From Haloarcula salinisoli (GTDB taxonomy: Archaea; Halobacteriota; Halobacteria; Halobacteriales; Haloarculaceae), in contig NZ_RKLQ01000001.1 in assembly GCF_019599405.1 (NCBI RefSeq), positions 186,001-250,000 of the forward strand: a DNA stretch of 64,000 nt. Reading direction: 5' to 3'. Numbering within the stretch: the stretch's first letter is position 1; the number at the start of each line of letters is the position of its first letter. Below, piece after piece: positions 17,057-54,458 of this stretch. A program made the translations under genes and the position numbers. The notes beneath the pieces are model-generated. The model ran no database searches, was not told where the DNA came from, and saw nothing but the letters and a program-made list of their open reading frames with translations.

Positions 17057-17959
17057 ATGCAAGTTGGCTCGCGCCGCGCCGTCCTCAACCCCGTCAGCGG
17101 TGACGGCGGTCACGCCGACGCCGTCGAGCGACTGCTCTCGGCCCGTGGCTTCGCCGTTGCCCGGACCGAAGGCCCGGGCGACGCGCTCGAGCTCGGCCGA
17201 GCCGCCGGCGAGGCAGGCGCCACCGAAGTCGCCGTCGCCGGCGGGGACGGGACGGTCAACGAGGTCGTCCGGGGGCTGGCCCGGGCCGACCACCTCGAGG
17301 CGGTGACGCTGTCGGTGATTCCGGTCGGGACCGCGAACCTGCTGGCGGGGACTATCGGCGTCGACGACCGCCAGCAGGCCATCGAGGTCGCAGACACCGG
17401 CGACGTGCGGAGCATCGACGTGGGCTTTGCGGACGAGGAGCCGTTTCTCGTCTCCTGTATCGCCGGGTTGCCGGCCGAGGCGAGCCTGGCGGCCTCCAGC
17501 GACCTGAAGTCACGGTTCGGGACGCTGGCCTTTCTCGTGACCGGCGCCCAGGAGGCCATCGAGTTCGACGGGCTGGACATCACCATCGAGGCCGTGGGCG
17601 AAGACGGCCCCGTTAGCTGGTCCGGTTCGGCGACGTGTCTGCTCGTGGGCAACGCCCGGAAGTTCGTCGAACGGGGCGGGCAAGCGGCGATGGAAGACGG
17701 ACTGCTCGACGTCGCCATCGTCGAACGGATGCCGACCGGCAACCTCGTCGCCGAGGCCATCGGCCACCGGCTGCTGGCGGCCGACACCGAGGGCGTCACG
17801 CACGTCCGTGCGACGGCGCTGTCCGTCGACGGCCACGGCGACCCGGTCACCTTCAGCCGGGACGGTGAAGTCGCCGAGCACGAGCGGCTGGATATCCGGG
17901 TCCGGAAACGGACACTCGACCTCAGAGTCGGCCCGGACTACGACCCCGACCCGCGGTGA
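17057..17959 (+). CDS. Diacylglycerol/lipid kinase family protein
   Basis: 300 residues from the ATG reading MQVGSRRAVLNPVSG. The DAGK catalytic signature is clear: NPVSGDGG at residues 11-18, VAVAGGDGTVNEVVRGL (GGDGT nucleotide-binding loop) and IPVGTANLLAGTIGV. The C-terminal half is the beta-rich domain of YegS/DgkB-like kinases. The likely reaction is ATP-dependent phosphorylation of a lipid or isoprenoid alcohol; the archaeal substrate is unknown. Confidence 0.9.
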   Translation: MQVGSRRAVLNPVSGDGGHADAVERLLSARGFAVARTEGPGDALELGRAAGEAGATEVAVAGGDGTVNEVVRGLARADHLEAVTLSVIPVGTANLLAGTIGVDDRQQAIEVADTGDVRSIDVGFADEEPFLVSCIAGLPAEASLAASSDLKSRFGTLAFLVTGAQEAIEFDGLDITIEAVGEDGPVSWSGSATCLLVGNARKFVERGGQAAMEDGLLDVAIVERMPTGNLVAEAIGHRLLAADTEGVTHVRATALSVDGHGDPVTFSRDGEVAEHERLDIRVRKRTLDLRVGPDYDPDPR

Positions 17960-18161
17960 CTCATCTCACCCGGAGACTGGTCCAGAAGCTGGCTGCCCCG
18001 CGCTACTGGCCACAGGACACTTTGTTTCATCACCGGGCGGCCAGTACAACCAGAAGCTTCAGTATCGCGTGTCCTATGTAGGTCCGTATGAACGCTTCGT
18101 GCTGTGCTGTGCGACGACACCCGGCGGTTCGTCGCCTCTACGGTCCTCTTCGACAGCGGTC

Positions 18162-23729: not shown

Positions 23730-23859
23730 TTTTGCTGGCGCAAACCGACGAGCGAAGCGAGTCGGCAGCGCCAGCAAACAACTTCCTGGAGATTTGAATG
23801 AGACCAGTCGCGCACAGCGGAGCGAGCACGTCTGGGCGTAGTTCAAATCTCCTCCTCGG
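23708..23859. repeat. Duplicated tRNA-Ser 3' end and flanking hairpin module
   Basis: AGTTCAAATCTCCTCCTCGG occurs at the end of the tRNA (23708-23727) and again exactly at 23840-23859, with an inverted partial copy (GGAGATTTGAA) near 23789-23798. Each direct copy is followed by a GACGAGCG(A/T)AGCGAGTC hairpin-like stretch and a GCCAGCG or GGCAGCGCCAGC segment. This fits either a partial tandem duplication or an attachment-site scar. Confidence 0.7.
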
Positions 23860-23923
23860 TGTGCAGCACAATCGACGAGCGTAGCGAGTCGCCAGCGCCG
23901 GCACTGACGAGCCACACGGACGC

Positions 23924-36237: not shown

Positions 36238-36309
36238 ATGTCGGAACACCCGACGGAGGATAGAGGAAGTCGCCGCGAGGCGACTGGGTGTGAAATTCGC
36301 CCCGAGTGA
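36238..36309 (+). CDS. Putative leader peptide ORF (23 aa) upstream of the LeuA/CimA-type gene
   Basis: A 23-codon ORF from ATG to TGA (begins MSEHPTEDRGS, ends GCEIRPE). A 7-bp hairpin with a GCGA loop is embedded in its codons 11-16. Its stop overlaps the start of a second mini-ORF. Whether it is translated depends on where transcription starts: CTATACTA immediately before the ATG could itself be a TATA box, which would put the TSS inside this ORF. Confidence 0.4.
   Translation: MSEHPTEDRGSRREATGCEIRPE
36268..36285 (+). promoter_or_regulatory. Perfect hairpin in the synthase leader
   Basis: AGTCGCC and GGCGACT form a 7-bp stem around a GCGA (GNRA-type) tetraloop. It lies 41 bp upstream of the likely GTG start of the synthase. 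In mRNA it would be stable and could act as an attenuation or translation-control element. Confidence 0.55.
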
Positions 36310-52530: not shown

Positions 52531-53454
52531 ATGGAGGACTTTGACCAGTTCAGCGACGTCGGCGAGGCACAGGTGACCCGCGCAATCGGCCAGGAGTGGA
52601 CCGAGGAGTTCATGGACTACTCCGATACGGAGGTCATCATCATCGGCGGTGGCCCCTCCGGCCTGATGGCCGCGAAGGAGCTCTCCGAGCGCGGTGTCGA
52701 AGTGATGGTCGTCGAGAAGAACAACTACCTCGGGGGCGGCTTCTGGCTCGGCGGCTTCCTGATGAACAAGGTCACCGTGCGCGACCCGGCTCAGGAGATT
52801 CTGGCGGACCTCGACGTGGACTACCTCCAGTCCGAGGAGAGCGAGGGCCTCTACGTCGCCAACGGACCCGAGGCCTGTTCGGGTCTCATCAAGGCTGCCT
52901 GTGACGCCGGTGCGAAGATGCAGAACATGACCGAGTTCACTGACATCGTCATCCGCGACGACCACCGCGTCGGCGGCATCGTGATGAACTGGACGCCGGT
53001 CCACGCGCTGCCCCGGGAAATCACCTGTGTCGACCCCATCGCCGTCGAGTCCGACATCGTCATCGACGCGACGGGCCACGACGCGATGGCGGTCAAGAAG
53101 CTCGACGAGCGGGGCGTCCTCGAGGGCGAGGGCCCCGAAGCTGGCGACACCGGGATGGACCAGACCGGTGGCGACACCTACGGCGCACCGGGCCACGACT
53201 CGCCGGGCCACGACTCGATGTGGGTCGGCGAGAGCGAGGACGCCGTCGTCGAACACACCGGGAAGGTCCACGACGGCCTCATCGCGACCGGCATGGCGAC
53301 GGCGACCACCCACGGCCTCCCGCGCATGGGCCCGACCTTCGGCGCCATGCTCGTCTCCGGGAAGAAGGCCGCCCAGGCCGCACTGGACGAGTTGCAGGTC
53401 GACGCGCCCGACGTGACGCTGTCGACGAGTGGTCCGGCGCCCGCTGACGACTAG
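52531..53454 (+). CDS. thi4: Thiazole synthase Thi4 (HET-thiamine precursor)
   Basis: 307 residues from the ATG reading [13 protein letters not shown]. An FAD/NAD-type Rossmann motif ([20 protein letters not shown]) is followed by [15 protein letters not shown] and the C-terminal [20 protein letters not shown]. Cys166 in [11 protein letters not shown] matches the sulfur-donating, suicidal cysteine of yeast and Haloferax Thi4, unlike methanogen forms that carry His there. It makes the thiazole part of thiamine from NAD and glycine. No TPP riboswitch was seen upstream; the nearby ThiR gene is the likely regulator. A hairpin-rich spacer follows the stop. Confidence 0.93.
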
Positions 53455-53800
53455 AGAGATGTCGAACGGAGTGAGACATCTCTTACAAGTCGAGCGGGCG
53501 TAGCCCGCGAGACGAGCGAGGTTCTGACCGCAGGGAAGAACCTCGACAAAGCGCAGCGGGGAGAGCGATGCGCGATGCGCATCGCCAGCGAGCGGTGAAA
53601 CCGCGAGCGTAGCGACCCGCGAGCAGCGGGACGTCGACCGAAGGGAGAAATCTCGTTTCAGTCGAACGGCGCTTTGCACCGTGAGACGAGCGAGACCTCT
53701 CGGTAACCGCGAACGGCGAGCGTAGCGACCAGCCAGCAGAGAGACTTCTTGCTTCCTTCGAAGCCTCCGACAGTCGAACGGAGTGACCCAGTGAGAACCC
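53455..53800. repeat. Array of hairpin modules downstream of thi4
   Basis: Starting at the thi4 stop: 9-bp stems with 11-nt loops at 53455-53483 (AGAGATGTC/GACATCTCT) and 53517-53545 (CGAGGTTCT/AGAACCTCG); GCGGGC-GTA-GCCCGC at 53494-53508; GCGATGCGC-GAT-GCGCATCGC at 53565-53585; shorter ones near 53592-53604, 53616-53630 and 53750. GTCGAACGGAGTGA occurs at 53461 and 53773, and GAGCGTAGCGACC twice. The two 11-nt loops share the pattern GA(A/C)CG(G/C)AG(T/G)GA. Confidence 0.75.
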
Positions 53801-53895
53801 TCGTTCGAGTCGACTGCGGTCCCAGCTTTCCGCCGGGCGCTGCCCTGGAAGCCATTATTTCTATTGAAACACTTATATCACGATAATACATACAC
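53801..53895. other. Intergenic AT-rich stretch
   Basis: Between the hairpin array and the next gene the sequence becomes AT-rich (acttatatcacgataatac) and contains probable TATA elements. No gene seen. Confidence 0.4.
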
Positions 53896-53916
53896 ATTTC
53901 CGACTCAGACGGAAAT
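53896..53916. promoter_or_regulatory. Inverted repeat between promoter and start codon
   Basis: ATTTCCG and CGGAAAT form a perfect 7-bp inverted repeat with a 7-bp spacer, directly between the TATA-like ATAATACATA (53883-53892) and the ATG at 53919. It is a candidate operator or a 5' mRNA hairpin. Confidence 0.45.
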
Positions 53917-53918
53917 AG

Positions 53919-54458
53919 ATGTATGATTACCACACTATGCCGAACGAAACCGAACAGACGACCGACCATGATTCGGGCGGTGACACCGGCGGCCTCGAAG
54001 TCTCACTCTGGGTCAGGCGGCCGGTGTGTGGGCCGCGGACGACGGTCATCGACCGGCTGAGCGCGTTGCGGACGGCCGGTGCGCTCGACGATTTCTCGGT
54101 GACGGCCTGGCCGGAAGAGATCGCTCTGACCGGCGACGACACGCAAGACGACCTGCTCGAGACGATTGCAGGCTTCGAGGACTGGGCCGCCGACCGCGGG
54201 CTGAGCCTGCGGCCGCCCTTCGAGACGCGGACGACCTCGCTGCTGGTCGGGGACAGCGAGGACGTGCTGCGGACGCCGATGCTGCTCGCGGCCGCCTACG
54301 AGGACGGCGACCTCGTGGGTATCTACCCCTGTACGGACGGGACGAAAACCTGGACGATTCCGGCGTTCCTCGACGCGCTGGAGGCCGACGAGAAACGGAC
54401 CCCGACAGGCGCGGGCACCGACGCGGTGCTGCCGGCGACGGAACGACCGACGAGCTAG
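53919..54458 (+). CDS. Conserved haloarchaeal protein of unknown function
   Basis: 179 residues from the first ATG after the TATA-like element (MYDYHTMPNETEQ; an ATG at 53937 is the alternative). An alpha/beta domain, EVSLWVRRPVCGPRTTVIDR then ALDDFSVTAWPEEIA, ends with LVGIYPCTDGTKTWTIPAFL and an acidic tail. It resembles small haloarchaeal proteins sometimes labelled HTH-containing, but I cannot support a DNA-binding motif. Its last 4 bp overlap the 3' end of the convergent metallopeptidase gene. Confidence 0.65.
   Translation: MYDYHTMPNETEQTTDHDSGGDTGGLEVSLWVRRPVCGPRTTVIDRLSALRTAGALDDFSVTAWPEEIALTGDDTQDDLLETIAGFEDWAADRGLSLRPPFETRTTSLLVGDSEDVLRTPMLLAAAYEDGDLVGIYPCTDGTKTWTIPAFLDALEADEKRTPTGAGTDAVLPATERPTS

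What the first reader, a model, noticed from the sequence alone, without database searches (positions are those of the whole stretch)
53455..53800. Hairpin array in the spacer after thi4
At least six stem-loops lie in about 350 bp. Two have 9-bp stems with 11-nt loops of matching pattern GA(A/C)CG(G/C)AG(T/G)GA while the stems differ entirely, which indicates compensated evolution of the stems around a fixed loop. GTCGAACGGAGTGA and GAGCGTAGCGACC recur. Similar GAGCG(A/T)AGCGA modules sit after tRNA-Ser. This looks like a dispersed family of structured intergenic elements (REP-like or RNA-level).
Basis: partly seen in the sequence, partly recalled or inferred. Interest (0 to 1): 0.6.

Follow-up and report, generated by a model that had tools for sequence, protein, structure and literature searches.

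The report
Capped hairpin arrays at stop codons
In a salt-loving archaeon, stretches of small hairpins that share one unusual cap lie directly at the stop codons of many genes; they form a widespread, fast-changing family of palindromic repeats, probably marking transcript ends, and the cap contains a sequence known from test-tube work as an exceptionally stable DNA mini-hairpin.

Summary
The "11-nt loop" is itself folded: a tandem GA/GA mismatch, exactly 2 base pairs and mostly a GNA triloop. In an unbiased scan of 71 kb of this haloarchaeon's intergenic DNA, GA/GA made up 103 of the hairpins with a 2x2 mismatch (next type 4), and only loop lengths 3 and 11 were in clear excess. The genome holds 380 copies of GARCGNAGYGA against 96 for a reversed control; nearly all haloarchaeal families sampled show an excess. 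Stems covary strongly (276 double-changed cells, 95 expected). In this clade arrays are mostly sense-oriented and often begin at the stop codon (TAG|CGAG). Some capped hairpins precede CCTTTTT, terminator-like, always with the cap on the T strand. Arrays grow, shrink and change stems between species 94% identical. Stems stay almost wholly Watson-Crick, two caps are flipped, and the cap is absent from RNase P and SRP RNAs, suggesting the sequences are rewritten as DNA. The one Y1 transposase gene has no capped hairpin near it. Best reading: a REP-like palindromic family marking transcript 3' ends, a new variant of a known kind. Function is inferred, not shown. The same cap sits in scattered bacterial repeats.

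The parts
53452..53800 (+). hairpin array that begins at the thi4 stop codon TAG (53452-53454), sense orientation
   Evidence: folding z about -5; first stem starts directly after the stop
53455..53483 (+). hairpin 1: 9-bp stem AGAGATGTC/GACATCTCT, cap GAACGGAGTGA (GA/GA, A-T, C-G, triloop GGA)
   Evidence: closest relative G002 has AGAGACTTC-GAGCGGAGCGA-GAAGTCTCT at the same place: three pairs changed, all on both sides
53489..53513 (+). hairpin 2: GTC - GA/GA - GCGGGC GTA GCCCGC - GAC (same rule with a 6-bp inner stem)
   Evidence: sequence; first G002 copy GTC GA GCGGC GCA GCCGC GA GAC
53517..53545 (+). hairpin 3 (A type): CGAGGTTCT / cap GACCGCAGGGA / AGAACCTCG
   Evidence: member of the 101-sequence A alignment
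53565..53585 (+). hairpin 4: 9-bp stem GCGATGCGC/GCGCATCGC, triloop GAT
53588..53608 (+). hairpin 5: GC - GA/GA - GCGGT GAA ACCGC - GC (GNA triloop)
   Evidence: first G002 copy GCGGC GAA GCCGT: T-A to C-G on both sides
53605..53615 (+). cap motif GAGCGTAGCGA without its own outer stem
53616..53630 (+). small hairpin CCCGC/GCGGG, 5-nt loop GAGCA
53636..53646 (+). cap motif GACCGAAGGGA, 2-bp outer stem
53661..53687 (+). hairpin GTC - GA/GA - ACGGcGC TTT GCaCCGT - GAC
   Evidence: direct reading; alternatives
53718..53728 (+). cap motif GAGCGTAGCGA
53776..53786 (+). cap motif GAACGGAGTGA
23745..23765 (+). capped hairpin after tRNA-Ser: CCGAC/GAGCGAAGCGA/GTCGG
23873..23891 (+). second capped hairpin after tRNA-Ser: CGAC/GAGCGTAGCGA/GTCG
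   Evidence: whole or split homologue in 31 of 32 genus genomes

Best explanation
The array is a REP-like cluster of 'GA-capped' palindromes placed at the 3' end of thi4. Each unit is an outer stem, a tandem GA/GA mismatch, two base pairs and a (mostly GNA) triloop. Shown here: the family, its structure rule, its covariation, its place at stop codons and before some T-tracts in sense orientation in this clade, and its rapid turnover. Inferred: (1) the hairpins act at transcript 3' ends (pausing or terminating RNA polymerase, closing the mRNA 3' end, insulating convergent neighbours, possibly slowing ribosomes at the stop codon); (2) their sequences are kept palindromic, swapped and flipped by DNA events (hairpin-templated copying or recombination between units), helped by a cap that is exceptionally stable as single-stranded DNA; (3) no dedicated transposase moves them.
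For: Family and rule. Covariation: 276 double-changed cells vs 95 +/- 9.8 shuffled, 0/500; slid versions 17-58. 3'-end placement: exact motifs per kb of spacer about 3.6 convergent, 1.5 tandem, 0.4 divergent; tandem-spacer orientation 40 sense:10 antisense in G000, 11:0 in G002, by spacer 19 sense-only:5 antisense-only; TAG stops followed by CGAG 17/187 vs TGA 2/263 and TAA 0/89 in G000, 8/102 vs 2/143 and 0/61 in G002, TAG 1/167 in other haloarchaea. Terminator-like: 8 of the 10 hairpins before T5 in the G000 stretches carry a GA-mismatch cap on the T strand, plus one in G053; none reversed. Turnover: orthologous spacers 212 vs 20 bp, 95 vs 230 bp; a terminator-like hairpin replaced whole while CCTTTTTAGC is kept. 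DNA level: G.T 5 and A.C 1 of 352 stem cells; two reversed caps against 37 forward; cap absent from 30 RNase P and 30 SRP RNAs; GCGNAGC is the published stable DNA mini-hairpin, Tm of GCGAAGC 78 C (PMC4686876).
Against: No expression data for this organism. Most arrays, the thi4 one included, lack a T-tract. Outside this clade tandem-spacer orientation is not sense-biased (7:13). In the alignment the outer ends were fixed by the search pattern and about 30 G000/G002 rows were picked partly by pairing, which inflates covariation there; the other genus rows were not picked by pairing. G.T exceeds A.C slightly (12:3 over stem and cap), which leans to the GNA strand acting as RNA or single-stranded DNA. 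The G000 stretches were chosen near motif hits, and gene calls are from a home-made caller.
Confidence: 0.5

Rival explanations
1. Purely RNA-level 3'-UTR element: selection keeps terminator or mRNA-protecting hairpins, and the GA/GA-GNA cap is simply a stable RNA cap favoured at high salt.
For: Sense bias and stop-codon anchoring; cap always on the T strand in terminator-like hairpins; E. coli REPs within 15 nt of a stop codon stall ribosomes (cited in PMC12306157); hairpins upstream of 503 termination sites in Haloferax (PMC7237163).
Against: Cap absent from 60 RNase P/SRP RNAs; hardly any G.U in stems; tetraloops barely enriched in intergenic hairpins (74 vs 51); flipped caps; antisense copies outside the clade.
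Confidence: 0.25
2. Neutral by-product: hairpin-primed or template-switch DNA synthesis at very stable mini-hairpins keeps making perfect palindromes; position reflects only where insertions are tolerated.
For: Stable DNA cap, WC-perfect stems, whole-hairpin swaps and array growth or loss, scattered presence in unrelated bacteria.
Against: Does not by itself explain sense orientation, TAG|CGAG anchoring or the caps before T-tracts.
Confidence: 0.15
3. Non-autonomous mobile element (REP/RAYT, MITE or PATE) moved by a transposase.
For: Dispersed copies, presence/absence between close relatives; PATEs with near-terminal palindromes related to IS605 are known in Haloquadratum (PMC3119063); a separate inverted-repeat class in this genome carries the same cap.
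Against: Only one Y1 transposase gene, no capped hairpin in the 3.4 kb around it; no fixed ends or target duplications seen; at thi4 the nearest relatives show a graded series of hairpins rather than one clean empty site.
Confidence: 0.08
4. Chance or composition of GC-rich spacers.
For: High GC (67%).
Against: All controls are far exceeded.
Confidence: 0.01

Closest known systems
Bacterial CGTC-tagged REP elements (Di Nocera 2013, PMC3733652)
   Same: Short dispersed intergenic palindromes with 8-9 bp stems, found 3' of genes in convergent and unidirectional spacers, no transposase associated.
   Different: No CGTC tag or CCA tail seen here; reported loops are 4-5 nt and no GA/GA step is described in the passages read; the text search found no haloarchaeon.
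GTAG REP elements with RAYT transposases (PMC3733652)
   Same: Dispersed 3' palindromes, clusters, variable stems.
   Different: No GTAG tag was recognised and the single Y1 gene is not flanked by units.
Haloquadratum PATEs and SMRs (PMC3119063)
   Same: Transposase-free, palindrome-bearing repeats in haloarchaea.
   Different: Those have element boundaries, terminal repeats or IS605-like ends; the arrays here are tandem hairpins anchored at stop codons.
Haloarchaeal T-stretch terminators (PMC7237163)
   Same: Hairpins before T-tracts 3' of genes.
   Different: The published signal is the T stretch; no loop rule was reported in the text read.
d(GCGNAGC) DNA mini-hairpins (PMC4686876)
   Same: GC GNA GC core of the common GAGCGNAGCGA cap.
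   Different: Described as oligonucleotides; here it sits naturally on a GA/GA step over a variable stem.

Membership tests
REP elements (general) | short palindromes, many copies, intergenic | tested here: met
   380 exact copies of one motif form; 103/112 sampled copies intergenic
REP elements (general) | conserved family sequence in stem or tag | tested here: inconclusive
   A units share CGAGR/YCTCG ends, but the mid-stem is free and only the cap is common to all units
CGTC REPs | terminal CGTC tag and short CCA-type tail | tested here: not met
   A units start TAGCGAG; no CGTC tag in the listed units
GTAG REPs / RAYT | tyrosine transposase flanked by the repeats | tested here: not met
   one Y1_Tnp gene, no caps in its 3.4-kb locus
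PATE / MITE | defined ends, ITRs or IS605-like terminal palindromes | tested here: inconclusive
   none seen for arrays by reading; the separate GCCAGAAAGCCCC...GGGGCTTTCTGGC class has inverted ends
Intrinsic (T-tract) terminator | stable hairpin directly followed by at least five T | tested here: met
   met by a minority only: 8 capped hairpins in the G000 stretches; not by the thi4 array
Intrinsic (T-tract) terminator | terminates transcription in vivo | not testable with these tools
   no RNA data
Known Rfam family | match to a curated covariance model | tested here: not met
   no match in 53300-54000 up to E 1

The most novel reading that the evidence does not exclude
The GA/GA + 2 bp + GNA cap is a general signature of DNA hairpins across archaea and bacteria: unrelated intergenic palindromes converge on it because it folds very stably in single-stranded DNA, and palindromes are born and rewritten by copying around it. 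Some haloarchaea have then recruited such hairpins as stop-codon-anchored transcript ends.
Probability: 0.3. Interest if true: 0.8.

Novelty: new variant of a known kind. Interest (0 to 1): 0.58.

Why it matters
It gives a simple, searchable structural rule for a large class of haloarchaeal intergenic DNA that neither Rfam nor the papers read describe, links it to a DNA fold known mainly from oligonucleotide chemistry, and makes two open questions testable: how palindromes arise and stay perfect, and whether archaeal transcript ends use hairpins placed at the stop codon.

Tried and rejected
Replication-strand polarity: the first listing seemed to show one orientation over 1.3 Mb, but this came from the list being cut at 100 places; one search shows 65/65, mixed. 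The first thi4 comparison skipped up to 120 nt after the stop because the query carried a stop symbol, so its 'absent in 28 relatives' is not valid; redone. The first flip count was faulty and was redone. Orc1/Cdc6 positions added nothing. A literature search by literal motif returned mainly primer papers.

Full report
WHAT IS THERE. The spacer after thi4 (53455-53918) lies in a haloarchaeal genome (67% GC; G000, 4.03 Mb). The region folds about 5 standard deviations better than shuffles as DNA and as RNA.

THE LOOP IS A CAP. Read closely, GA(A/C)CG(G/C)AG(T/G)GA is GA/GA, then two base pairs, then a GNA triloop. RNA folding draws exactly that. To test it without assuming it, I scanned 71 kb of intergenic DNA for all hairpins. 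Only loop lengths 3 (216 vs 51 expected) and 11 (172 vs 34) are in clear excess. Among hairpins with a 2x2 internal mismatch over an outer stem of 4 bp or more, GA/GA occurs 103 times and the next type 4 times (each type also appears as its complement, TC/TC, on the other strand); the inner stem is exactly 2 bp in 100 of 103, and the triloop is GNA in 73. Longer inner stems occur too (53489-53513). In stretches from other haloarchaea GA/GA was also the commonest type wherever any type appeared in number.

HOW COMMON. GARCGNAGYGA: 380 vs 96 for the same pattern read backwards; GAACGNAGTGA: 130 vs 3. The latter is enriched in nearly all of 98 relatives across 17 families of the order, while in most other families of the phylum it is near control level. 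A-type hairpins (CGAGR...YCTCG) are found in all 32 genomes of the genus, 72 in G000 and 65 in G002, with 0-3 per control count.

COVARIATION. 101 distinct A hairpins from the genus align without gaps. 93% of cells pair; 276 cells have changes on both sides vs 95 +/- 9.8 in shuffles and 17-58 in slid structures. The mid-stem pairs show all four Watson-Crick types; the first cap pair shows G-C, C-G and A-T. Caveat: the outer ends were fixed by the search pattern, and about 30 G000/G002 rows were picked partly by pairing. Among 88 genuine rows stem cells are Watson-Crick in 326 of 352, with 5 G.T and 1 A.C.

WHERE. In 464 kb, 103 of 112 exact motifs are intergenic although intergenic DNA is 17% of the sample; per kb they favour convergent over tandem over divergent spacers. 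In tandem spacers orientation is 40 sense:10 antisense in G000 and 11:0 in G002, but 7:13 in other haloarchaea; counted by spacer in G000 and G002, 19 sense-only and 5 antisense-only. Arrays frequently start on the stop codon: TAG followed by CGAG 17/187 in G000 and 8/102 in G002, vs about 1% for TGA, none for TAA, and 1/167 TAG stops in other haloarchaea. Convergent genes can carry one array each, each in its own sense direction (L036). Hairpins in general peak in the first 10 nt after the stop in G000 (30 vs 10 shuffled). A small group sits directly before CCTTTTT: in the G000 stretches 8 of 10 such hairpins have a GA-mismatch cap, always on the T strand, plus one in another genus.

TURNOVER. 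Between G000 and G002 (flanks about 94% identical), 12 of 76 orthologous spacers hold cap motifs, 7 of them in only one species; lengths change from 212 to 20 bp or 95 to 230 bp. At thi4 the first hairpin of G002 differs from that of G000 at three pairs, each on both sides. G025 and G008 carry short, altered versions; G024 and others have different short hairpins or none evident. A terminator-like hairpin was replaced entirely while the T-tract stayed. Two A hairpins have the cap reversed in place, against 37 in the usual direction.

DNA OR RNA? For DNA: a common cap contains GCGNAGC, a mini-hairpin whose DNA form (GCGAAGC) melts at 78 C and resists nucleases (PMC4686876); stems stay Watson-Crick; flips and block swaps; the cap is absent from 30 RNase P and 30 SRP RNAs. 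For RNA: sense bias, stop-codon anchoring, cap on the T strand. The two fit together if DNA events write the sequence and transcript ends make use of it. That synthesis is inference.

OTHER ORGANISMS. The same cap occurs in bacterial and methanogen spacers, often with a second GA/GA step (GA GC GA AC GAA GT GA GC GA), for example in Methanosarcina spelaei. In 17 genomes picked because they hold one copy, it is enriched over control in some (Chloroflexi 1136 vs 288, Accumulibacter 347 vs 26) and not in others (Burkholderia 121 vs 132). That sample is biased.

KNOWN KINDS. Closest are REP elements, especially the transposase-free CGTC class (PMC3733652), and haloarchaeal PATEs/SMRs (PMC3119063). 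Tags, tails and element ends do not match, so I do not file it in either class. A 2025 survey reports REPs in archaea in general, with REPs close to stop codons linked to ribosome stalling in E. coli (PMC12306157). No Rfam match. The library searched holds open-licence papers only, so novelty is provisional.

CONFIDENCE. That this is a real dispersed family with the stated structure: about 0.95. That it acts at transcript 3' ends and is rewritten as DNA: about 0.5.

Noticed in passing
L033:1440-1760, L037:1480-1760, L048:14300-14560; also L034, L036, L043: A separate repeat class of about 250-300 bp with inverted ends GCCAGAAAGCCCC...GGGGCTTTCTGGC and an inner pair GCCCCTTTCAGTCCCACCC...GGGTGGGACTGAAAGGGGC; its arms carry the same GA cap in opposite orientations. 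Looks like a MITE or PATE.
   Followed up: partly
L040:4651, L041:8524, L041:9046, L043:8641, L046:1886: GAGCGNAGCGA or GAACGNAGTGA hairpins enclosed by long arms of the type GGATTCGAA...TTCGAATCC, which resemble a tRNA T-loop sequence.
   Followed up: no
L075, L081, L098 (Pseudomonas/Stutzerimonas): GCGAACGNAGTGAGC lies just upstream of GTTAGAGGC-like ends reminiscent of integron attC sites.
   Followed up: no
window 36249-36301: leuA-Halobacteria cis-regulatory RNA (Rfam RF03001, 70.9 bits).
   Followed up: no
L052:6200-6700 and 17600-18100: Tandem arrays of 100-200 bp units with identical capped hairpins, next to stretches of N; looks like recent local duplication.
   Followed up: no
G026 (genus relative), whole genome: Often uses the cap GAGTGAAACGA (inner pairs G-C, T-A), a compensated variant.
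   Followed up: no
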